Assembly: GCF_016862795.1 (NCBI RefSeq)
Contig: NZ_BONQ01000129.1
Span: 124,001-188,000 of the forward strand
Source of the DNA: Dactylosporangium siamense
Lineage (GTDB): Bacteria; Actinomycetota; Actinomycetes; Mycobacteriales; Micromonosporaceae
Reading direction: 5' to 3'
DNA: 64,000 nucleotides
Shown here one piece after another: positions 55,077 to 63,796 of the stretch. The notes beneath the pieces were generated by a model, which was not told the origin of the DNA, did not search any database, and was given only the letters and a program-made list of their open reading frames with translations. Position 1 is the first letter of the stretch, and every line of letters begins with the position of its first letter. The translations under genes and the position numbers were made by a program.

Positions 55077-55218
55077 AATTGTGTCCTTCGGTTATTCGCG
55101 GCCGCGACGACGTGCGCGGTGCCTGCTGAACTCTTCGGCGATTGTGCCAGGCGATCATGATTGCCGGGCTGCGTTTGTTGATGGAGCTGTAGCTCGCCGC
55201 GGTGCTTGACCTGGGGTT

Positions 55219-55282
55219 TGTCGGTCAGTCGGGGGACCACCCGTTCGGGTGGATTTCGATGTTCGCGAGTTCCGGACCCACC
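55219..55282 (+). repeat. IS21-family left end: two 23-bp terminal repeats
   Basis: Copies at 55219-55241 and 55260-55282 of the 23-bp element described for 54327-54412. They precede istA by about 45 bases, the expected place of IS21 transposase-binding sites. The remaining 142 bases between the SUKH start and this end hold no recognisable gene. Confidence 0.65.
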
Positions 55283-55325
55283 TGCGCCGGTGGGAGCATC
55301 GGCTGGTCTGGACGGGAGCCTGCCG

Positions 55326-56950
55326 ATGGCGGCGATGTCGAAGGTCGACCTGTTCGCGGCGATCCGACGGGACTCGCGGGCCGGCATGTCCGTGCGGGCG
55401 TTGGCTCGTCAGTATCGGGTCAGCCGCCGCACGGTGCGTTCGGCGCTGCAGTCGGCGTGGCCGCAGCCGCGCAAGCCGCTGCCGCCGCGGCCGTCGAAGC
55501 TGGATGAGTTCAAGCCGATCATCGACGGCATCCTCCGCGCGGACCTGGACGCGCCCCGCAAGCAGCGGCACACCGTGAAACGGATCTACGACCGGCTGAT
55601 CGCCGAGCACGGCATGCTCGACGTGTCCTACGCGGTGGTCCGCGCCTACGTCGCGGACCGCAAACCGAAGATCCGCGCCGAGGCCGGTCGAGGACCGGTC
55701 GACGTGTTCTTCCCGCAGACGCACCGGCCGGGCGCTGAGGCGGAGGTCGACTTCGGAGAGGTCGCCGTCAACCTGCGCGGCGAGCTGGTGACCTGCATGC
55801 TCGTCGCGCTTCGGCTCTCCTTCTCCGGCAAGGCTGTCCATCGGATCTTCATCTCAGGTGGTCAGGAGGCGTTCCTGGAGGGTCACGTCCACGCGTTCAC
55901 CACCCTCGGCGGGGTCCCAACCGGAAAGATCCGCTACGACAACCTCCGGGCGGCGGTCGCCCAGGTCCTCGGGTTCGCGCGGCAGCGGGTCGAAACCGCC
56001 CGCTGGACGGCGTTCCGATCCCACTTCGGCATCGATGCCTTCTACTGCCAGCCGGGCCTGCAAGGCGCCCACGAGAAGGGCGGGGTCGAGGGCCAGATCG
56101 GCTGGTTCCGCCGCAACCACCTCGTCCCCGTCCCCGAAGTCGACTCGCTGGACCAGCTCAACGTCATGGTCGACGCCTGGGACACCGCCGATGACGCCCG
56201 CCGCATCAGCACCCGCGCCCACACCGTCGGGGAACTGTTCGCGATCGAACGGCCGCTGCTGGTGGGTTGCCGGAGGAGTCGTTCGAGACCGGCACCTGGC
56301 TCGGCCCGCGCGTCGACCGCTACAGCCAGGTCACCGTCCGCACGAACCGGTACTCAGCGCCGGTGCGGCTGGTCGGCCGACAGGTCCGCGTCCACCTGCA
56401 TGCTTCGCACCTGGTCGTCTATGACGGGCGTGTAGAGGTCGCCCGGCACGAACGGTTGATGGCCAAGAGCGGTAGCCGTCTCGACCTCGATCACTACCTG
56501 GAAGGCCTGCTCCGCAAACCCGGCGCACTGCCCGGCTCCACCGCGCTGGAACAGGCCCGCGCCGCGGGCAAGTTCACCCCGGTCCACGACGCCTGGTGGG
56601 CAGCGGTCCGCAAAGCCCACGGCGACGCCGCCGGCACCCGCGCCCTGATCGAGGTCCTGCTCCTGCACCGGCACATGCCCCACGAGCACGTCGTCGCAGG
56701 CCTGGCCGCAGCGCTGCGCGCCGGCGCGCTCACCGCCGACGCGGTCGCGTTGCAGGCGCGCAAGTTCGCCGAGACCGACGACCACCCAACCGCCACCGAC
56801 CAACCGGCCCGGCCGACCGACAACGTCGTCTCCCTCACCCAGCGCCGGCTCGCCCAACTGCCGGCCGACACCCGGCCGCTGCCCACCGTCACCGCATACG
56901 ACCAGCTGCTCCGCATCCGTCGCCGCACCGCAGAAGGGACCAGGCCATGA
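55326..56950 (+). pseudogene. istA: IS21-family transposase IstA, frameshifted near 56267
   Basis: ATG 55326 opens IstA: an N-terminal HTH (VRALARQYRVSRRTVRSAL), then the DDE catalytic core with AEVDFGEV (first Asp), KIRYDNLRAAV (second Asp) and HEKGGVEGQIGWFRR (Glu), and the C-terminal beta-barrel (VDRYSQVTVRTNRYSAPVRL). The first frame runs into a wrong tail after ...IERPLLVG at about 56265, while the correct continuation (LPEESFETGTW...) is in another frame to 56950. One missing T in the GGTT run at 56267-56268 explains both. The C-terminal frame ends 4 bases into istB (ATGA). Together the pieces give a normal-length IstA of about 540 residues. Confidence 0.88.
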
Positions 56951-57471
56951 CTCGCCACCGAGGACTCACCGAGCAGGCCGCCGACGCGGCGATCGACTCC
57001 GCCTGCCGGCTGCTGCGCCTGCCGACCATCCGCGGCCAGTTCCCCGAACTCGCCGAGGCCGCCGCCCGCAGCCAGATGACCTACCGCGGGTTCCTCGCCG
57101 AACTGCTCATGGCCGAGTACGACGACCGGGCCCGGCGCCGGTCTGAACGCCGGATCAAAGCCGCCGCGTTCCCGCGGGACAAGAGTTTGCGCGCGTTCGA
57201 CTTCGACGCCAACAGCACCGTCGACCCCGCCATAATCCACACACTCGCCACCTGCGACTGGGTCAAGAAGGGCATGCCGCTCTGCCTGATCGGCGACTCC
57301 GGCACCGGCAAAAGCCATCTCCTCATCGCGTTGGGCACCGAAGCCGCGATGGCCGGCTACCGGGTTCGCTACGTCCTGGCGACGAAGCTTGTCAACGAGC
57401 TCGTCGAGGCAGCTGACGACAAGATGCTCGCCAAGACGATCGCCCGATACGGCCGCGTCGATCTGCTTTGC

Positions 57472-57477
57472 ATCGAC
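57472..57477 (+). repeat. 6-bp target duplication (ATCGAC), left copy
   Basis: ATCGAC here and at 61370-61375 flank the inserted RIT element. In istB it occurs once (codons Ile176-Asp177), so the second copy was produced on insertion. Confidence 0.75.
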
Positions 57478-57504
57478 CTATGCCGAGACCGCGATTATGC
57501 CGAG
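57478..57504. repeat. RIT left inverted repeat
   Basis: 27-bp repeat with CTATGCCGAG at its outer end and TATGCCGAG at its inner end; inverted partner at 61317-61343 with two mismatches. Confidence 0.8.
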
Positions 57505-57543
57505 GGTCTCCGTGAGTTGGTTGGCCCGATGGCGGGTTGAGGT

Positions 57544-58020
57544 TCAGTCGTCGGCATAGTCGGGGGTCATGTCGTATTCGTCGACGTCCAGGACCGCTCC
57601 GGTGGCCTGGAGGAAGTCGAGAACCTCACGGTCGAGATGCCAACCGAACAAGTTTGGAGTCTCACCGGCGGCATCGTTGCGATCGTGCTGCTCGGCCTCC
57701 TGGTCGTTGAAGTAGCGCACGACCTCCAGGACGGCGCCGGATCCTTCGCTCTCGGTGTCCAAGCGGCTGGCCAGAGCGGCGATCGCCGCGGTGTGTGGCA
57801 CGAGTCGTTCGATGATGCGGGCGACCTGCTCGTCAACGCATAGCCCCGGTTCGCGGCAGACGATCTTCCAGCAGTGTCGGGCCGGGATGACCCTGGGTTC
57901 GGTGAAGCGGCTGCCGCGGACGGTGGTTTCGTCGGGCTCGAGTCCGAGGATGGCTGCCATCTCGGTCGCCGAGGTGTTGCGGCTGAACAGCGCGAAGTAG
58001 GCGTACTGGTTGACGTTCAC
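57544..58020 (-). CDS. DUF4279 domain protein, RIT cargo
   Basis: A 158-residue protein from GTG 58020. It matches the DUF4279 outline: YAYFALFSRNTSATEMAAILGLEPDETTVRGSR (family opening Y-a-y-f.i....s..eIt..Lgl.Pd....G), then HCWKIVCREPGLCVDEQVARIIERLVPHTAAIAALASRLDTESEG, and a C-terminal HLDREVLDFLQATGAVLDVDEYD. DUF4279 proteins are frequent in polymorphic-toxin and immunity loci, so a defensive role is plausible. It lies inside the RIT element, in the same direction as the recombinases, 72 bases after ritC. RIT elements are usually described as carrying recombinases only, so this cargo is unusual. Confidence 0.78.
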   Translation of the reverse strand: MNVNQYAYFALFSRNTSATEMAAILGLEPDETTVRGSRFTEPRVIPARHCWKIVCREPGLCVDEQVARIIERLVPHTAAIAALASRLDTESEGSGAVLEVVRYFNDQEAEQHDRNDAAGETPNLFGWHLDREVLDFLQATGAVLDVDEYDMTPDYADD

Positions 58021-58092
58021 CGGTGAAGAATAGAAGTCGTCCTGGCTGCGGGCGTGCGCATTATTTGACTGAGCTGGTGTACCTGGTCCTGG

Positions 58093-59082
58093 TCATAGTC
58101 CGTCGAGGAATGCGAGGGTCGTGTCGGAAGGGCGGTAACGGCCGGGCCTTGCGGTCAGGGGCGTGGTCAGGGCCAGCGCCTGCTCTTTAGTGGACATGTC
58201 GGCGTGGACGTAGGCATCGGTGGAGCGGATGCTGGCGTGGCCGAGCCAGAGCGCGATGACGGTGGTGTCGACGCCTGCCTGGAGCAGCGACATCGCGCAG
58301 CTGTGCCGCAGGACGTGTGGGTGGATGTCCTTGTCGCGCAGAGACGGGCAGCTTTTCGCGGCGGTCTTGGTGTGGGTGTTCAGGCGTTGGGCGACTGCGT
58401 CGCGGCTGAGGCGACGGCCGGTGCGGGTGGGAAACAGCGGGTCGGCAGGGTGTCCGGCGCGCTCGTTCATCCAGGACTTGAGGATGGCTTGAACCGGGCC
58501 GCTGAGCGGGACGGCGCGCTGCTTGCGGCCTTTGCCTTCGCAGCGGACCGCGGCGCCGTCGCCCAGGCTGATGTCGGCGCAGTTGAGGCTGGTGAGTTCG
58601 GAGACGCGCAGGCCGGTCTGGACCGCTAGGGCGATGAGGGTCTTGTCACGTCGTCCTTCCCAGCGGTTCGGGTCCGGCGCCGCGAGCAGGGCATCGACCT
58701 CGGTTTCGGTCAGGAAGGTGATGATCCGCTTGTCGAACCGCTTGGGCGGAATGTCCAGGACACGCTGGATGATCAGGGCGTGCTCGGGATGTTGAAGCGC
58801 GGCGTAGGAGAACAGTGACCGGATCGCGGTTAGCCGGACGTTGCGGGTTCTGGTGCCGTTGCCGCGCTCGTCCTCCAGATGGTTCAGGAACGCCGACACG
58901 GTGTCCGCATCGAGGTCGTTCCAATCCAGGTTCGCGGGCGGGGTGCCGGTGCGCTGTTGGATGAAGACCAGCAGCAGGCGCAGCGCGTCTCGGTAAGCTG
59001 CGACGGTGCGCGGGCTGGCCTGGCGCTGCCGGGCCAGCCGGTCGGTGAAGAACGCTTGCAGCGTGGCCGCGATCAGCGTCAT
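58093..59082 (-). CDS. ritC: RIT tyrosine recombinase RitC
   Basis: A 329-residue tyrosine recombinase from ATG 59082, which overlaps the ritB stop (ATGA). An N-terminal SAM-like core-binding domain (ATLQAFFTDRLARQRQASPRTVAAYRDALRLLLVFI) is followed by the catalytic domain: Arg in VQTGLRVSELTSL, His-x-x-Arg in HPHVLRHSCAMSL, His in WLGHASIRSTDAYVHAD, and Tyr in the same segment. The R-HxxR-H-Y set is complete. It is the third gene of the trio. The three recombinases probably act together on the CTATGCCGAG-type end repeats. Confidence 0.92.
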   Translation of the reverse strand: MTLIAATLQAFFTDRLARQRQASPRTVAAYRDALRLLLVFIQQRTGTPPANLDWNDLDADTVSAFLNHLEDERGNGTRTRNVRLTAIRSLFSYAALQHPEHALIIQRVLDIPPKRFDKRIITFLTETEVDALLAAPDPNRWEGRRDKTLIALAVQTGLRVSELTSLNCADISLGDGAAVRCEGKGRKQRAVPLSGPVQAILKSWMNERAGHPADPLFPTRTGRRLSRDAVAQRLNTHTKTAAKSCPSLRDKDIHPHVLRHSCAMSLLQAGVDTTVIALWLGHASIRSTDAYVHADMSTKEQALALTTPLTARPGRYRPSDTTLAFLDGL

Positions 59083-60008
59083 GAGCGGGCCGCCTTTCCG
59101 ATGCCTTCGCGGCGGGCCGCCGCCAGCGCGAGCAGTTCGGGCGCTGCGGACAGGTACCAAGTAGGTGTGGGCCGGTTCGCGGTGCCCCAGATAGGTCGAC
59201 AGCGACGGGATCTTGGCCTGGACGTTGTCCTCGGTGCGATACCAGTGCAGCAGGGTCCGGATGGCGAAGGAATGTCGCAAGTCGTGCAGCCGCGGCGGGT
59301 GCGGTGCTTCGGCGCCGATGCCGGCGGCGGTGACCAGTTGCCGGAACGTGGCGCTGACAACGGCATAGATCACCCGCCGACGCGTGCGGGAGATGAAGAA
59401 CGCGGGATCCTTGGGCCGCGGTGCCGTCGCGCAGCGCAACGTGTCGTATTCGCGTAGCGCCCGCACGACACTGTCGTGCAGCGGAACCAGCCGGGACTTG
59501 CCGAACTTCGATTCGCGGATCAGTAACACGCCTTGCGCCCAGTCGACGTCGTCGCAGTCGAGGCTGATCGCCTCGCCGATGCGCAAGCCGGAGGCGGCCA
59601 GCAGACCGAGCAGGTCCGGTAGGTCGCCGCCCGAAACGGCGGCTGGATGGCGTCGGATGCCGTGAGCAGCGCGGTGATGTCGGCGTCGGAGTAGAGGAAC
59701 GGCGGGCGCCAGCGCTGCCGGTGTGGCACCAGGCCCATTGGTGGGATCTCGGTGTCCGAATCGATGCCGCTCAGATAGTGGGCGAAGCCACGGACCGCGG
59801 TGATCCGTCGCGGGCTGACGGTCGTGACCACCTCGTCTTCGCGGAGCCGGACCCAAGCCAACGCGGCCTGGATCGTCACCGTGGTCTGGCCACGTTCGTC
59901 CAGGAACGAGACGAAGTCCGGCAGCAGCCAGGCCGCCTCCGCCATCTGGTGTCCCAAGGAACGACGAAGCCGCAGATAGTCCTCGAGATGCTCGCGCAGC
60001 CCGTTCAT
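59079..60008 (-). pseudogene. ritB: RIT tyrosine recombinase RitB with two frameshifts
   Basis: ATG 60008 (overlapping ritA stop) starts MNGLREHLEDYLRLRRSLGHQMAEAAWLLPDFVSFL. Near 59613 the frame is lost in a GG run: the correct continuation LLGLLAASGLRIGEAISLD (catalytic Arg) is in another frame, with RLHDLRHSFAIRTL (HxxR) and STYLGHREPAHTY. Near 59159 an extra A (T on the coding strand) shifts the frame again; WYLSAAPELLALAAARREGIGKAARS then finishes the protein with its catalytic Tyr and stops at 59079. One deletion and one insertion would restore a recombinase of about 309 residues. Either the gene is decaying or both are base-call errors. Confidence 0.87.
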
Positions 60009-61207
60009 GCGGCCGCCCCGGGCCAAGGCCGGGCGACCTGCCGCAGCGCAGCGAAATCGACCTTCGCATAGAGCGCGGTCGTGGCCAGGTCCTGGTGCCG
60101 CAGCACCTGACCGATCGCGGTCAGCCCAGCGCCTTGACGCAGCATCTGCTCGGCCAGGGCGTGCCGCAACCGGTGCGGCCCCACCCGGGTCAGCCGGGCT
60201 CGAAGACAGGCCCGCTTGACGACGTCGCTCACCAGATCCGCCCGGATCGGTGCGCGGGGAGCTCGACAGGTCAGGAACAGATGGCGGTCATCGAGCTGGG
60301 GCCGGGCGCCGGACAGGTAGGCGACCACCGCCTCGCCGGCCTCGACCGGCAGCGGCAGCCGGTCCTCGCGCCGACCCTTGCCCCGGACGAAGATCTCACC
60401 GCAACGCCAGTCAACATCGTCGAGCAGCAGCCGTGCTACCTCGATCGACCGCAGCCCCAGCCGGGCCACCAGCATCAGGATCGCGTAGTCGCGGACCTCG
60501 ACCGCAGTTTCGCGCGGGCACCGATCCAGCAGCAGTTGAACGTCGGCCGCCGGCATCGTCGGCGGCACCGAGGCCAGCCGCCAACCGCCGACCGGCGGAA
60601 CCGCCCCGCCCAGTTTCGTCGGAGTGGCTCCGCTCAGGTGAAGGAACCGCATCAGTGATCGAAGCTCGGCCACCCGGCCCTTCGCGGAGCCGGACGAGAC
60701 GTGCCTGCACTCGCGCAGCAGGAACGCGTTGAGGTCCGCTCCGGTCAACTGCTCCGGCGCGACTCGGCCGCCGACCACCGCATGGTCGGTCAGGAATCGA
60801 CGAGCCGTGTTCTCGTAACGCAGCATCGTGGATGCCGAAAGGCCGCGTTCCCGGTCCATCCAGCGGCGATATCGAGCCAGCAAGACGTCCAACGGCCCAA
60901 CCGCGACCTGCGCCTCGGGCACGACGCCCCGATCCCGCAGAAACGTCAACAACGGTAGCCAGCCCCGGACTCCGGCCAGCTGTCGACGACCAGCTCGTCG
61001 CTGGTCCACCAGAAACGCAGTCAGCCGATCCTCGCTCAGATCGGTGACCTCAAGCCCTTCCCGGCTCAGCCATTGCCCCACCAGGCCGAGGTCCTTGAGC
61101 ATGTTCCTGACCGTCAGGGGCGTATAGCCGCGCTGCGCCAGCCACTCCCGATAGCCCTCGACCTGCCCAGCCAATGCGCCAGCCTTCCGGCGCGGACTCC
61201 CTGTCAT
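60005..61207 (-). CDS. ritA: RIT tyrosine recombinase RitA
   Basis: A 400-residue recombinase from ATG 61207, preceded by GAGAGGGGG (a longer frame to 61246 exists). A long N-terminal core-binding region (VEGYREWLAQRGYTPLTVRNMLKDLGLVGQWLS and RYRRWMDRERGLSASTMLRYENTARRFL) leads to the catalytic domain: Arg in ARLGLRSIEVARLLLDDVDW, HxxR in GPHRLRHALAEQML, and VLRHQDLATTALYAKVDFAALRQV with the final His and Tyr. It is intact. Its stop overlaps the ritB start, as in other RIT trios. Transcription would begin in the right terminal region, which is dense in CTATGCCGA repeats. Confidence 0.92.
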   Translation of the reverse strand: MTGSPRRKAGALAGQVEGYREWLAQRGYTPLTVRNMLKDLGLVGQWLSREGLEVTDLSEDRLTAFLVDQRRAGRRQLAGVRGWLPLLTFLRDRGVVPEAQVAVGPLDVLLARYRRWMDRERGLSASTMLRYENTARRFLTDHAVVGGRVAPEQLTGADLNAFLLRECRHVSSGSAKGRVAELRSLMRFLHLSGATPTKLGGAVPPVGGWRLASVPPTMPAADVQLLLDRCPRETAVEVRDYAILMLVARLGLRSIEVARLLLDDVDWRCGEIFVRGKGRREDRLPLPVEAGEAVVAYLSGARPQLDDRHLFLTCRAPRAPIRADLVSDVVKRACLRARLTRVGPHRLRHALAEQMLRQGAGLTAIGQVLRHQDLATTALYAKVDFAALRQVARPWPGAAA

Positions 61208-61316
61208 CGTCGCCCCCTCTCGCAGGGAGCGTGTGCTCCCTTCCAATCAGGGCTGTGCCCACTTATAGAACTATGCCGATGTCAACACGCCGCCTTCACC
61301 CGATCGAGGACGACAG

Positions 61317-61343
61317 CTCGGCATAGTCGCGATCTCGGCATAG
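61317..61343. repeat. RIT right inverted repeat
   Basis: Inverted partner of 57478-57504 (25 of 27 bases). A further single CTATGCCGA copy lies inside at 61271-61279. Confidence 0.8.
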
Positions 61344-61375
61344 GTCGATCTATGCCGACATCCTCATAGATCGAC
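61336..61375. other. composite palindrome at the RIT right junction (att-like)
   Basis: CGGCATAG (61336-61343), spacer GTCGAT (61344-61349) and CTATGCCG (61350-61357) form one perfect inverted repeat with a 6-bp centre. Overlapping it, GTCGATCTATG (61344-61354) and CATAGATCGAC (61365-61375) form an 11-bp inverted repeat around a 10-base spacer. The centre GTCGAT is the reverse complement of the flanking target duplication ATCGAC. Arms of this size around a 6-8 bp centre are the usual architecture of tyrosine-recombinase crossover sites. Confidence 0.7.
61370..61375 (+). repeat. 6-bp target duplication (ATCGAC), right copy
   Basis: Right copy of the duplication described at 57472-57477; followed directly by the GAACTCGG that resumes istB. 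Confidence 0.75.
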
Positions 61376-61626
61376 GAACTCGGCTACATGGAACTGGACA
61401 AACGCGGCGCTGAACTGCTCTTCCAGGTCCTCACCGAACGCGAGGAGAAGGCGTCCGTCGCGATCGCGTCCAACGAGGCGTTCTCCGGTTGGACCAAGAC
61501 GTTCACCGACCCCCGGCTCTGCGCCGCGATCGTCGACCGGCTCACCTTCGGCGGCAACATCATCGAGACCGGCACCGACTCCTACCGCCTCGCCCAAACC
61601 CGCAACCAACTCGCCGGCTCGAACCC

Positions 61627-62070
61627 ATGACCCGAGCGCCCGCGGACGTCATGATCGTCTACGTCCTCACCGAACCCGTCGACGACTTCACCGCGCTCAC
61701 GCCGCTGCCCGACTGGATCAGCGCCGACCCCGTCCCGCACACCCACTGGGCGCTGCAAGCCATCCTTGCCCTCGCCGACGCCGCCGACTACGTCCACTGG
61801 GACGGCGACATGCGCCACCTCCCGTCCGGCGGCGCCGTCATCGCACCACCCGACACCCACCCATACCTCGTCATCAAGCGGGACAACAACGGCACCACCT
61901 TCGTGGTCAGCGACGCCGAGATCCCCGGACTCACTGACACCGTCGAACGCTCCACGCGCACCGAACGTCGTCCGATCGGAACCTGGACCCACCCGACCAG
62001 CCGGGACATCCCGACGCTGCTGCAGCCGACCCATCCGAACCTCGCCGCAGGCCCCGCCCCACCGTTCTGA
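61627..62070 (+). CDS. third IS21-associated gene, unknown function
   Basis: A 147-residue protein starting at ATG 61627, overlapping the istB stop by ATGA, so it should be translated with istB. The sequence (VMIVYVLTEPVDDFTALTPLPDWISADPVPHTHWALQAILALADAADYVHWDGDMRHLP) has an alternating hydrophobic N-terminus and a helical middle; the C-terminus is Pro/Arg-rich. No family is recognised. Inverted IS21-end repeats follow within 20 bases of its stop, so it lies inside the element. It could be a helper or a captured host gene. Confidence 0.6.
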   Translation: MTRAPADVMIVYVLTEPVDDFTALTPLPDWISADPVPHTHWALQAILALADAADYVHWDGDMRHLPSGGAVIAPPDTHPYLVIKRDNNGTTFVVSDAEIPGLTDTVERSTRTERRPIGTWTHPTSRDIPTLLQPTHPNLAAGPAPPF

Positions 62071-62172: not shown

Positions 62173-63796
62173 GGCTCTGTCGCGAACTGTGTGATGGATG
62201 CTGGACGATGAATTGTTGCCCGGGTGCGCGATGCCGTCAGACAGCTGCTTCCCCATCTGGACGGCATTGAGATCGACGAGGTCGTGGACGCTGGCCCCGA
62301 GTTGGTCCTCGTGGGACGGGTCCGTAGCGGTCAGGCCGTTTGTCAGGCGTGTGGGGTGTCGTCGTCTCGGGTGCATTCGCGGTATCGCCGGACGTTGGCG
62401 GATGTTTCCGGTCGCCGGCCGGTCGACGCGGATCGTGTTGTGGGTGCGCCGGTTCTTCTGCGACAACGCGGTGTGTGAGGCGCAGACGTTTGCCGAACAG
62501 ATCGATGGGTTGACTCGGCGGTGGTCGCGGGTCAGTGATGGGCTGCGACAGATGCTGACCACGGTCGGGCTCGCGCTGGCCGGGCGGGCTGGGGCGAGGA
62601 TGGCTGCAGCGTTGGGTATGCCGGCCAGCCGTCACCGTCTGCTCCGTCTGGTCCGGGCTTTGCCCGATCCTGTAGTGGGTGAGGTGGCGGTGCTCGGGGT
62701 CGATGATTTCGCGGTGAGGCGTGGCCATCACTACGGCACCGTGCTGATCGACTGTGAGACGCACCGGGTTGTCGACCTGCTGCTCGGTCGCGACGCCGGC
62801 CCGTTGACCGCCTGGTTGCAGCAGCATCCGGCGCCCCGGGTGATCTGCCGGGACCGGGCCAGCGCATATGCCGAGGCCGCACGCACCAGCGCGCCAGAAG
62901 CCGTCCAGGTCGCTGATCGGTTCCACCTGTGGCAGAACCTGGCTGCCGCGGTGGAACGCTGCGCGGCTCAGCACAAAGCCTGCCTCGACGAGTCCGACGA
63001 GTCCGACGAAGTTCCTGCCGAGCAGCCCAGGCCCGCTGCGGTAGCCGCGCCCACCGGGGCGATGGCCGAACGCCGCCGTGCCCACCACGCTCTCGTGCAT
63101 GAACTGCTGGCGCAAGGCGCCGGGTTCCGGCAGATCGCCCGTCATCTGGGCTGGAGTCACCACACCGTGTCGCGATACGCCCACGCCGCAACGTGGCAGG
63201 AGATGATGGTCGGTCAGAAGGTCCGGCCGAGTCTCGTTGACTCGTTCAAGCCCTACCTGATCCGGCGGATTAACGAGGGCTGCCTCAAGGCCACCACATT
63301 GCACCGTGAGATCCGCGCTCAGGGCTTTGCCGGCAGCTACGCGATCCTGCGCAAGTTCGTCGAGCAGTACCGCAGCAAACCCGACCTGACATCGGCGCGC
63401 CGCCCACCCTCGGTGCGGCAGGTGACCGGATGGATCTGCCGCCGACCCGACGACCTGGCCGACCGCGACACCGTCCAACTGCAGGCGATCCTCCAGCGAT
63501 GCCCGTTACTGCGCGCCGCCGCCGAGCTGGTGCGTTGGTTCGCCGACATGCTCACCCACCTGCGTGGTCAGCAGCTCACCGCCTGGATCGCCGCAGCCGA
63601 AACGGCGGCATTGCCCGGCATCACGAAGTTCGCCACCGGCCTGACCGCCGACCTGGACGCCGTGACCGCCGGCCTCACCCTGCCCTTCAGCTCCGGCCCG
63701 GTCGAGGGCAACGTCAACCGCATCAAGATGATCAAACGGCAGATGTACGGGCGCGCAGGCTTCGATCTGCTACGTAAACGAGTTCTGCTGGCATAA
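62173..63796 (+). mobile_element. ISL3-family element, right end not identified
   Basis: GGCTCTGTCGCGAACTGTG at 62173 is a typical ISL3-type left terminus, adjacent to the IS21 right end. The transposase gene follows. No inverted copy of this terminus is found after the transposase stop, where unrelated sequence and a new gene start within 75 bases. The right end is therefore deleted or strongly diverged. Confidence 0.6.
62224..63796 (+). pseudogene. ISL3-family transposase with a frameshift near 62410
   Basis: GTG 62224 begins VRDAVRQLLPHLDGIEIDEVVDAGPELVLVGRVRSGQAVCQACG, the normal ISL3 N-terminus with a zinc-ribbon Cys pair. Near 62410 an extra G (CCGG run) shifts the frame; the correct continuation VAGRSTRIVLWVRRFFCDN is in the next frame, which stays open to 63796. 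The catalytic core is intact: AVLGVDDFAVRRGHHYGTVLID (first Asp), VICRDRASAYAEAA (second Asp), and SSGPVEGNVNRIKMIKRQMYGRAGF (Glu). With one base removed the protein is about 523 residues, normal for the family. As read, the gene is not translatable from its proper start. Confidence 0.88.

What the first reader, a model, noticed from the sequence alone, without database searches (positions are those of the whole stretch)
57472..61630. RIT element sits inside istB and its removal restores the gene exactly
Seen: three overlapping tyrosine recombinase genes, inverted end repeats (25 of 27 bases), and flanking ATCGAC copies. Joining 57477 to 61376 rebuilds Walker B LLCIDELGY and a 261-residue IstB in frame. 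This fixes the insertion point to the base and gives a 6-bp duplication, useful because RIT targets and mechanism are poorly defined.
Basis: partly seen in the sequence, partly recalled or inferred. Interest (0 to 1): 0.68.

Follow-up and report, generated by a model that had tools for sequence, protein, structure and literature searches.

The report
RIT element with portable palindromic end
A three-recombinase mobile element sits inside a transposon gene, and comparison with relatives suggests that such elements insert without duplicating their target, bringing their own 6-base mimic of it on a small palindrome.

Summary
A RIT (recombinase-in-trio) element interrupts istB of an IS21-family element; joining 57477 to 61376 restores a 261-residue IstB. 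The "6-bp duplication" is not the best reading. At the ritA end, between inverted repeat and host, lie a hexamer (GTCGAT), a 20-bp palindrome P (61350-61369) and a second hexamer (ATCGAC). Of 75 elements with both flanks (window included), 62 carry such a palindrome exactly 6 bp outside an arm; control positions do so in 0.9%. One-sided P lies on the ritA side in 28 and the ritC side in 32, even between elements 99.4% alike. In one genome five unoccupied IS701 copies, identical at 198-200 of 200 flank bases, hold only the arm-side hexamer, so the P-side hexamer came with the element. Two more elements agree, two lean that way, one is mixed, one contrary, and two distant comparisons fit the P side. 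Targets identified are mainly mobile-element genes. The likely mechanism resembles SE/Tn554 elements: a circle integrates through one of two core sites sharing P; this is inferred. The window's ritB and istA look frameshifted, so this copy is probably not autonomous.

The parts
56947..57477 (+). 5' part of istB (IS21 helper ATPase), ending in the hexamer of the Walker B codons
   Evidence: Pfam IstB_IS21 E=2.6e-36; in frame with 61376-61630
57472..57477 (+). hexA ATCGAC: host|arm hexamer; by comparison with empty sites of relatives, the target's own hexamer
57478..57505 (+). left arm: outer half-site CTATGCCGAG (57478-57487) and inner half-site TTATGCCGAG (57495-57504)
57544..58020 (-). passenger gene, DUF4279 domain protein, 158 aa
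   Evidence: Pfam DUF4279 E=8.4e-20
58093..59082 (-). ritC, tyrosine recombinase, open
   Evidence: Phage_integrase E=2.1e-38 for 58096-59079
59079..60008 (-). ritB, tyrosine recombinase, carries two single-base frameshifts relative to relatives (extent from the overlaps with ritA and ritC)
60005..61246 (-). ritA, tyrosine recombinase (start codon uncertain), overlaps ritB by 4 bp (ATGA)
   Evidence: Phage_integrase E=2.8e-27; overlap seen
61316..61343 (+). right arm: inner half-site CTCGGCATAG (61317-61326), outer half-site CTCGGCATAG (61334-61343)
61344..61349 (+). hexB GTCGAT, spacer between arm and P (reverse complement of hexC here)
61350..61369 (+). P, 20-bp imperfect palindrome of two arm-like half-sites (7 of 10 complementary)
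61370..61375 (+). hexC ATCGAC, P|host hexamer; element-borne by comparison with relatives
61376..61630 (+). 3' part of istB
   Evidence: Pfam IstB_IS21 E=1.1e-17 for 61388-61627
55206..56435 (+). istA of the host IS21-family element; its frame ends early and another frame (56267-56950) is open downstream, which suggests a frameshift (the downstream frame has no NCBIfam hit)
   Evidence: NCBIfam transpos_IS21 E=7.8e-65

Best explanation
This is a RIT element in which the mobile unit is larger and less symmetric than its inverted repeats suggest. Shown by sequence: both ends carry a 28-bp arm with two 10-bp half-sites. At one end only, the arm is followed by a 6-bp spacer, a 20-bp palindrome P made of two more arm-like half-sites, and a second hexamer. 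The outer half-site of the arm, the spacer and the first half of P form what looks like a normal tyrosine-recombinase core site (two inverted half-sites, 6-bp spacer). Shown for three relatives: the target's own hexamer stays next to the bare arm, and the hexamer outside P is brought by the element. Insertion there adds the element without duplicating the target; it looks like a 6-bp duplication only when donor and target hexamers coincide, as in the window. Inferred: the element moves as a circle whose joint is arm-hexamer-P-hexamer-arm, i.e. two core sites sharing P. Strand exchange at one of them with a target hexamer leaves P on that side of the target, so the body ends up in either orientation (an in-place inversion between the arms would give the same result). 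Inferred: the hexamers at P are inherited from earlier sites and help to choose a matching target, which is why related elements return to similar codons (Walker B of IstB, catalytic-motif codons of IS701, ISL3, IS256, IS481 and others).
For: P lies exactly 6 bp outside an arm in 60 of 75 elements with both flanks (arms chosen from repeat and motif, without P), 62 after two were re-registered by hand; for all 60 the best 20-bp palindrome is at offset 6; control positions score that well in 0.9%. P half-sites match the better of the element's own arms at 7.94 of 10 bases, target flanks match at 2.5, null 2.5. One-sided P: 28 on the ritA side, 32 on the ritC side, two degenerate P included. Of ten pairs at 90% identity or more, five are opposite (L144/L146 at 99.4% among them), three agree, two involve L008 without P. 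Empty sites: L147, five same-genome IS701 copies with GCGGCC = arm side, while the P side is CGTGCC; L005, two istB copies ATCGAC = arm side, P side CTGGAC; L011, two IS701 copies CTCGAC = arm side, P side GTCGAT; L009 and L053 lean the same way. These empty sites lack P. Within an element hexA and hexC share 5.27 of 6 bases; between elements 2.47.
Against: L010: two empty istB copies match the P-side hexamer, not the arm side, and in the 14 other listed rows the match also stops before hexA. L145: three copies in a related genome match the arm side, but a 96-99% copy in its own genome matches the P side. L017: a 73/87% copy in its own genome carries the P-side hexamer; L148: a 71/63% copy does too. 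Eleven of 75 elements have no P and seem to carry arm-side target halves at both ends; four have P at both ends; these need a further event. A pattern search for the predicted solitary P between two right-hand target halves found 0 in 15 genomes or records. In 36 of 64 elements hexA equals hexC, which a true duplication would also give. No circle, joint or enzyme activity was observed. The window copy has a broken ritB and a P at the threshold (7 of 10).
Confidence: 0.66

Rival explanations
1. A true 6-bp target-site duplication: the target hexamer is copied to both sides on insertion, and differing hexamers in relatives are later mutations.
For: Window hexamers are identical; hexA equals hexC in 36 of 64 elements.
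Against: L147: hexC differs from hexA at three of six bases although the two 200-bp flanks are 198-200 and 200 of 200 identical to the five empty copies, so recent mutation is unlikely. In 11 of 64 elements hexC differs from hexA yet equals the reverse complement of hexB, which points to an element origin.
Confidence: 0.06
2. Tn916-like conservative integration: the two 6-bp overlaps form heteroduplexes, and replication or repair assigns target and donor hexamers to either side without bias.
For: L010, one copy for L145 and the distant copies for L017 and L148 fit the opposite assignment; hexA equal to hexC could be repair.
Against: The three closest or clearest cases (L147, L005, L011) and two leaning ones put the target hexamer on the arm side; the sample is small.
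Confidence: 0.26
3. P is not part of the element but a pre-existing palindromic hotspot beside which RITs insert.
For: Four elements have P at both ends.
Against: Empty sites of L147, L005, L011, L009, L010, L145 and L053 run straight from left to right target half without P.
Confidence: 0.02
4. Body orientation relative to P is changed by in-place inversion between the two arms, not by integration through either core site (compatible with the best explanation in other respects).
For: Arms are inverted repeats and arm-hexB-P looks like an intact core site; hexB = reverse complement of hexA, with hexC different, in four of 64 elements could be the trace of such an inversion.
Against: Not separable from alternative-junction integration with these data.
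Confidence: 0.4

Closest known systems
RIT (recombinase-in-trio) elements (PMC3414803, passages read; PMC2864759, one passage read; Ricker et al. 2013 not held)
   Same: Three adjacent overlapping tyrosine recombinase genes in the order A-B-C, about 3.5 kb, inverted repeats, insertion in transposon genes. PMC3414803 reports a 28-9 bp inverted repeat and an 'overlapping palindromic sequence' and sequence variation at the ends.
   Different: The passages read do not give the fixed arm-6-P20-6 register, its occurrence on either side, the element-borne hexamer or empty sites. The window copy also carries a DUF4279 passenger.
Strand-biased circularizing elements (SEs) (PMC10214605, passages read)
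   Same: Imperfect inverted ends, 6-bp spacer, target hexamer kept at one border and a donor hexamer ('fingerprint') placed at the other.
   Different: SEs have intA-tfp-intB-srap, not a RIT trio, and no 20-bp palindrome is described in the passages read. That paper's table marks target specificity, empty site and movement of RITs as not tested.
Tn554 family (through passages of PMC10214605 and PMC3414803; primary papers not read)
   Same: Tyrosine recombinases; the title of a cited paper says that transposition makes no target duplication; 6-bp footprint carried from the donor site.
   Different: TnpA/B/C genes; no P palindrome known to me (recalled).
GInts (PMC5385486, search listing only; also described in passages of PMC10214605)
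   Same: Islands with several integrases and a defined recombination module.
   Different: Four-gene module ginABCD; not compared in sequence here.

Membership tests
RIT element | Three adjacent tyrosine recombinase genes, same strand, A-B-C with short overlaps | tested here: met
   ritA and ritC hit Phage_integrase; ritB aligns with RitB of relatives but is frameshifted; ATGA overlap ritA/ritB
RIT element | Inverted repeats at the ends, element about 3.5 kb | tested here: met
   31 of 33 bases; body 3866 bp with a passenger; many relatives 3.3-3.4 kb
RIT element | RitA with two core-binding domains, RitC with extra C-terminal helix (PMC8138268, passage read) | not tested
   no structure was predicted
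SE-like hexamer rule (mechanism, not membership) | Target hexamer at one fixed border, donor hexamer at the other | tested here: inconclusive
   Seven elements with empty sites of about 85% identity or more: arm side = target in 3 clear and 2 leaning, 1 mixed, 1 contrary; two more distant comparisons (L017, L148) fit the P side
SE (membership) | intA, tfp, intB, srap genes | tested here: inconclusive
   gene content is a recombinase trio plus one DUF4279 gene; no profile of Tfp or Srap was run
Tn554 family (membership) | TnpA/TnpB of unequal size plus TnpC | tested here: inconclusive
   gene content as above; no profile of TnpC was run
Element with a target-site duplication | Target bases duplicated on insertion | tested here: inconclusive
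   not decidable in the window, where both hexamers are equal; contradicted in L147, L005, L011

The most novel reading that the evidence does not exclude
RITs move with a portable 32-bp double attachment cassette, two back-to-back core sites sharing one 20-bp palindrome. Its two hexamers record earlier targets and act as a short sequence guide, sending each lineage back to codons of catalytic motifs in other mobile elements. The body can sit in either orientation while the cassette always faces the same side of the target.
Probability: 0.4. Interest if true: 0.78.

Novelty: new member of a known kind. Interest (0 to 1): 0.6.

Why it matters
How RITs choose targets and move is listed as not tested in a 2023 comparison of tyrosine-recombinase transposons (PMC10214605, passages read). 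A fixed end register, base-exact empty sites in the same genome (L147) and a hexamer rule make predictions that one outward PCR can test. They also bear on how RIT boundaries and 'target duplications' should be annotated, and show RITs as frequent insertions in transposon genes at codons those genes can hardly change.

Tried and rejected
Empty istB in the window's own genome: none; besides the locus itself only stretches of 67 and 50 bp matched. A second full copy of the RIT in that genome: none, only short matches. Solitary P pattern: 0 in 15 genomes or records, none in the loci held; the pattern covers only IstB/IS701-type targets. pHG1 of Cupriavidus necator, a classical RIT locus, is a maze of partial copies and my arm search found no clean ends, although arm-like motifs stand 17 bp apart at L175:23217/23234 and 32784/32801; so the proteobacterial type RIT was not confirmed to have P. 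Some non-actinobacterial loci do (e.g. L084 Desulfocapsa, L091 Acidobacteria). Guessing the target hexamer from protein consensus was dropped: it would have been wrong for L147. Empties sought for L138, L149, L148 and L017: no close copy; L138's nearest (CGGCAC) fits both hexamers equally, L149's contiguous one (GGGTAA) fits neither, L148's and L017's fit the P side. For L145, more distant copies carry CGTGCC (one) and CTTGCC (two). Longest joined frame as target gene: unreliable in GC-rich DNA, replaced by profile scans. L144/L146 were re-registered by hand, and the sides of L010 and L080 (palindrome scores 5 and 6) were set by hand. Empty-site copies read: 2 of 40 records for L005, both others for L011, 2 of 4 others for L009, 2 of 24 for L010. 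145 of 160 candidate target frames were scanned.
Full report
Check of the observation. The window holds an IS21-family istB cut after ATCGAC at 57472-57477 and resumed at 61376. Joining 57477 to 61376 gives 261 residues with LLCIDELGYMEL, and both halves match Pfam IstB_IS21. The inverted repeat is 31 of 33 bases, 57472-57504 against the reverse complement of 61317-61349, with 16 or fewer at any other start tried. ritA and ritC are open and match Phage_integrase. ritB is not intact: it carries two single-base frameshifts relative to seven relatives. The upstream istA frame also ends early, with another frame open downstream. Relatives with intact trios exist (L007). Whether these are assembly errors or decay is not decided here.

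End structure. The right end is not a plain repeat plus target copy. Reading outward it is inner half-site, outer half-site CTCGGCATAG, GTCGAT (hexB), CTATGCCGACATCCTCATAG (P), ATCGAC (hexC), then istB. The left end is istB, ATCGAC (hexA), CTATGCCGAG and an inner repeat. So 3898 bp, 57478-61375, were added to istB.

Relatives. RitC-guided searches gave 80 loci in named genomes (capped list), 18 of 300 genomes of the same family and 12 of 396 of the phylum, the own genome counted in both; plasmid relatives came from blastn. The family is probably Micromonosporaceae, because duplicates of two named Micromonospora contigs turned up in it (inference). Of 120 loci examined for ends (89, 31), 91 had an arm pair found from repeat and motif alone, without using P; 86 were distinct and 75 had 32 bp or more of flank on both sides. 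In 60 of these 75 a palindrome scoring 7 or more of 10 stands exactly 6 bp outside an arm, and for all 60 that is the best offset between 0 and 15; control positions in the flanks reach 7 in 0.9% of cases. Two elements whose arms had been mis-registered bring this to 62, and two more have a degenerate P. Four have P on both sides, so 60 of these 64 are one-sided: 28 on the ritA side and 32 on the ritC side. P half-sites match the better of the element's own outer arms at 7.94 of 10 bases, inner repeats at 8.64 (arms were partly chosen for that), target flanks at 2.5 and the null at 2.5. P thus looks made of recombinase half-sites, and arm-hexB-P looks like a standard core site.

Orientation. 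Of the ten element pairs at 90% identity or more, five have P at opposite ends of the body, including L144/L146 at 99.4%; three agree and two involve L008, which has no P. In the IstB-type rows the host after hexC begins with GA of the next codon (34 of 64 elements of all target types begin with GA). P therefore seems to face a fixed side of the target while the body may face either way.

Hexamers. In 60 elements hexA and hexC agree at 5.27 of 6 positions on average and the reverse complement of hexB with hexC at 5.17, against 2.47 for hexA and hexC of different elements; part of this reflects shared target families. Across 64 elements hexA equals hexC in 36 (in 18 of these all three agree) and differs in 28; of the 28, hexB is the reverse complement of hexC in 11, of hexA in 4 and of neither in 13.

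Empty sites. L147: its genome has five other IS701 copies, 198-200 and 200 of 200 identical on the two flanks, contiguous, all with GCGGCC, which is hexA; hexC is CGTGCC; a 92-94% copy in another genome also has GCGGCC. L005: two istB copies (93-94% on the arm-side flank, 89-93% on the other) carry ATCGAC = hexA; hexC is CTGGAC. L011: two IS701 copies carry CTCGAC = hexA; hexC is GTCGAT (one copy has a small deletion nearby). L009: the one usable copy has ATCGAT, nearer hexA (5 of 6) than hexC (4 of 6); the other copy fetched proved occupied. L010 is contrary: two copies carry GTCGAT = hexC, not hexA ATTGAT (all). L053: an 86-87% copy has CGTGCA, nearer hexA. L145: three copies in a related genome carry hexA and a close copy in its own genome carries hexC. 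Two distant copies fit the P side: L017 (73/87%) and L148 (71/63%) (all). The model would let such copies be earlier donors, but they also fit the opposite assignment; because of them I put the best explanation at 0.66 rather than the 0.72 I had first written. None of the seven elements' empty sites contains P. For the window, plasmid istB relatives have ATCGAC (L173, which diverges soon after the site) or ATTGAC (L174, about 80% identical).

Targets. Candidate frames of the arm-side half of 56 of the 64 elements were scanned together (145 of 160 frames; eight elements had no frame of 60 aa). NCBIfam hits include IS21 IstB in 17 frames, IS256 in 7, IS701 in 5, IS481 and IS21 transposase in 3 each, and integron integrase, group II intron reverse transcriptase, IS5 and ISNCY in 2 each (families overlap, so these do not add up). 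Single scans of 30 frames from 27 elements gave mobile-element genes for 16: IS701 (L007), ISL3 (L009), IS481 (L012), IS21 transposase (L014), IS256 (L051, L053, L058, L144), group II RT (L066), an XisF-like recombinase (L069), tyrosine recombinase or integron integrase (L084, L091), IS5 (L087, L149), IS66 (L161) and IS1634 (L164); other genes for 4: hsdM (L134), a methyltransferase (L138), a histidine kinase (L052) and an ATPase (L153); no hit for 7. That the join often falls in catalytic-motif codons (Walker B IDE, IS701 VDETGF, RHxFAxHL of tyrosine recombinases) is read from the peptides with motif names recalled by me.

Mechanism. The sequence shows an asymmetric mobile unit with two potential core sites sharing P. 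Empty sites show that the P-side hexamer can be element-borne. The rest is inference: a circle with joint arm-hexamer-P-hexamer-arm, exchange at either core site, and hexamers inherited from earlier targets. In the SE system as described in PMC10214605 (passages read) the target hexamer stays at one border and a donor hexamer marks the other; RITs resemble this, with P added. Eleven P-less elements have flanks that resemble each other next to both arms (5 to 12 of the last 12 bases alike; about 3 expected for random bases), i.e. apparently arm-side target halves at both ends, and two of the four elements with P at both ends clearly have right-hand halves on both sides (L020, L037). This suits ends that exchange independently, or ordinary recombination between two RIT copies.

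Literature. Searches for 'RIT element', 'recombinase in trio', 'recombinases in trio' and related terms led to five papers that name RITs: passages of four were read, the fifth (PMC5385486) only as a listing. PMC3414803 notes the inverted repeat, an overlapping palindromic sequence and insertions in a transposase gene and in radC. Ricker et al. 2013 was not held, so part of this may already be in print there.

Verdict. The 6-bp duplication is better read as a target hexamer plus an element-borne copy. The element is a member of a known kind; the end architecture and hexamer evidence make its mechanism testable.

Noticed in passing
window 57544-58020; L016, L017, L020, L029, L015, L005: The space between ritC and the arm holds different single genes in related elements: DUF4279 in the window, a GNAT acetyltransferase in L016, an unrelated shared 132-175 aa protein in L015/L017/L020/L029 (weak sulfotransferase-like hit in three of the four), another without hit in L005. 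It looks like a passenger slot.
   Followed up: partly
L051:2301-10378: An 8.1-kb element contains further recombinase genes on the opposite strand on both sides of its inner trio, which looks like one RIT nested in another.
   Followed up: no
L032, L040, L049, L050, L077, L081, L083, L089, L094, L008, L151: Eleven elements without P seem to have arm-side target halves at both ends, in several cases from two different copies of the same gene family; L008 and L083 have identical inverted flanks, which may be assembly artefacts.
   Followed up: partly
L020, L037, L047, L062: P is present at both ends; in L020 and L037 both hosts are right-hand target halves.
   Followed up: no
window 55206-56950: istA of the host IS21-family element appears frameshifted as well as istB interrupted.
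   Followed up: partly
window 62198-63796: An ISL3-family transposase, 532 aa, lies next to the interrupted istB; an ISL3 gene is a RIT target in L009.
   Followed up: no
L066, L084, L091: RITs sit in a group II intron reverse transcriptase gene and in tyrosine recombinase or integron integrase genes.
   Followed up: no
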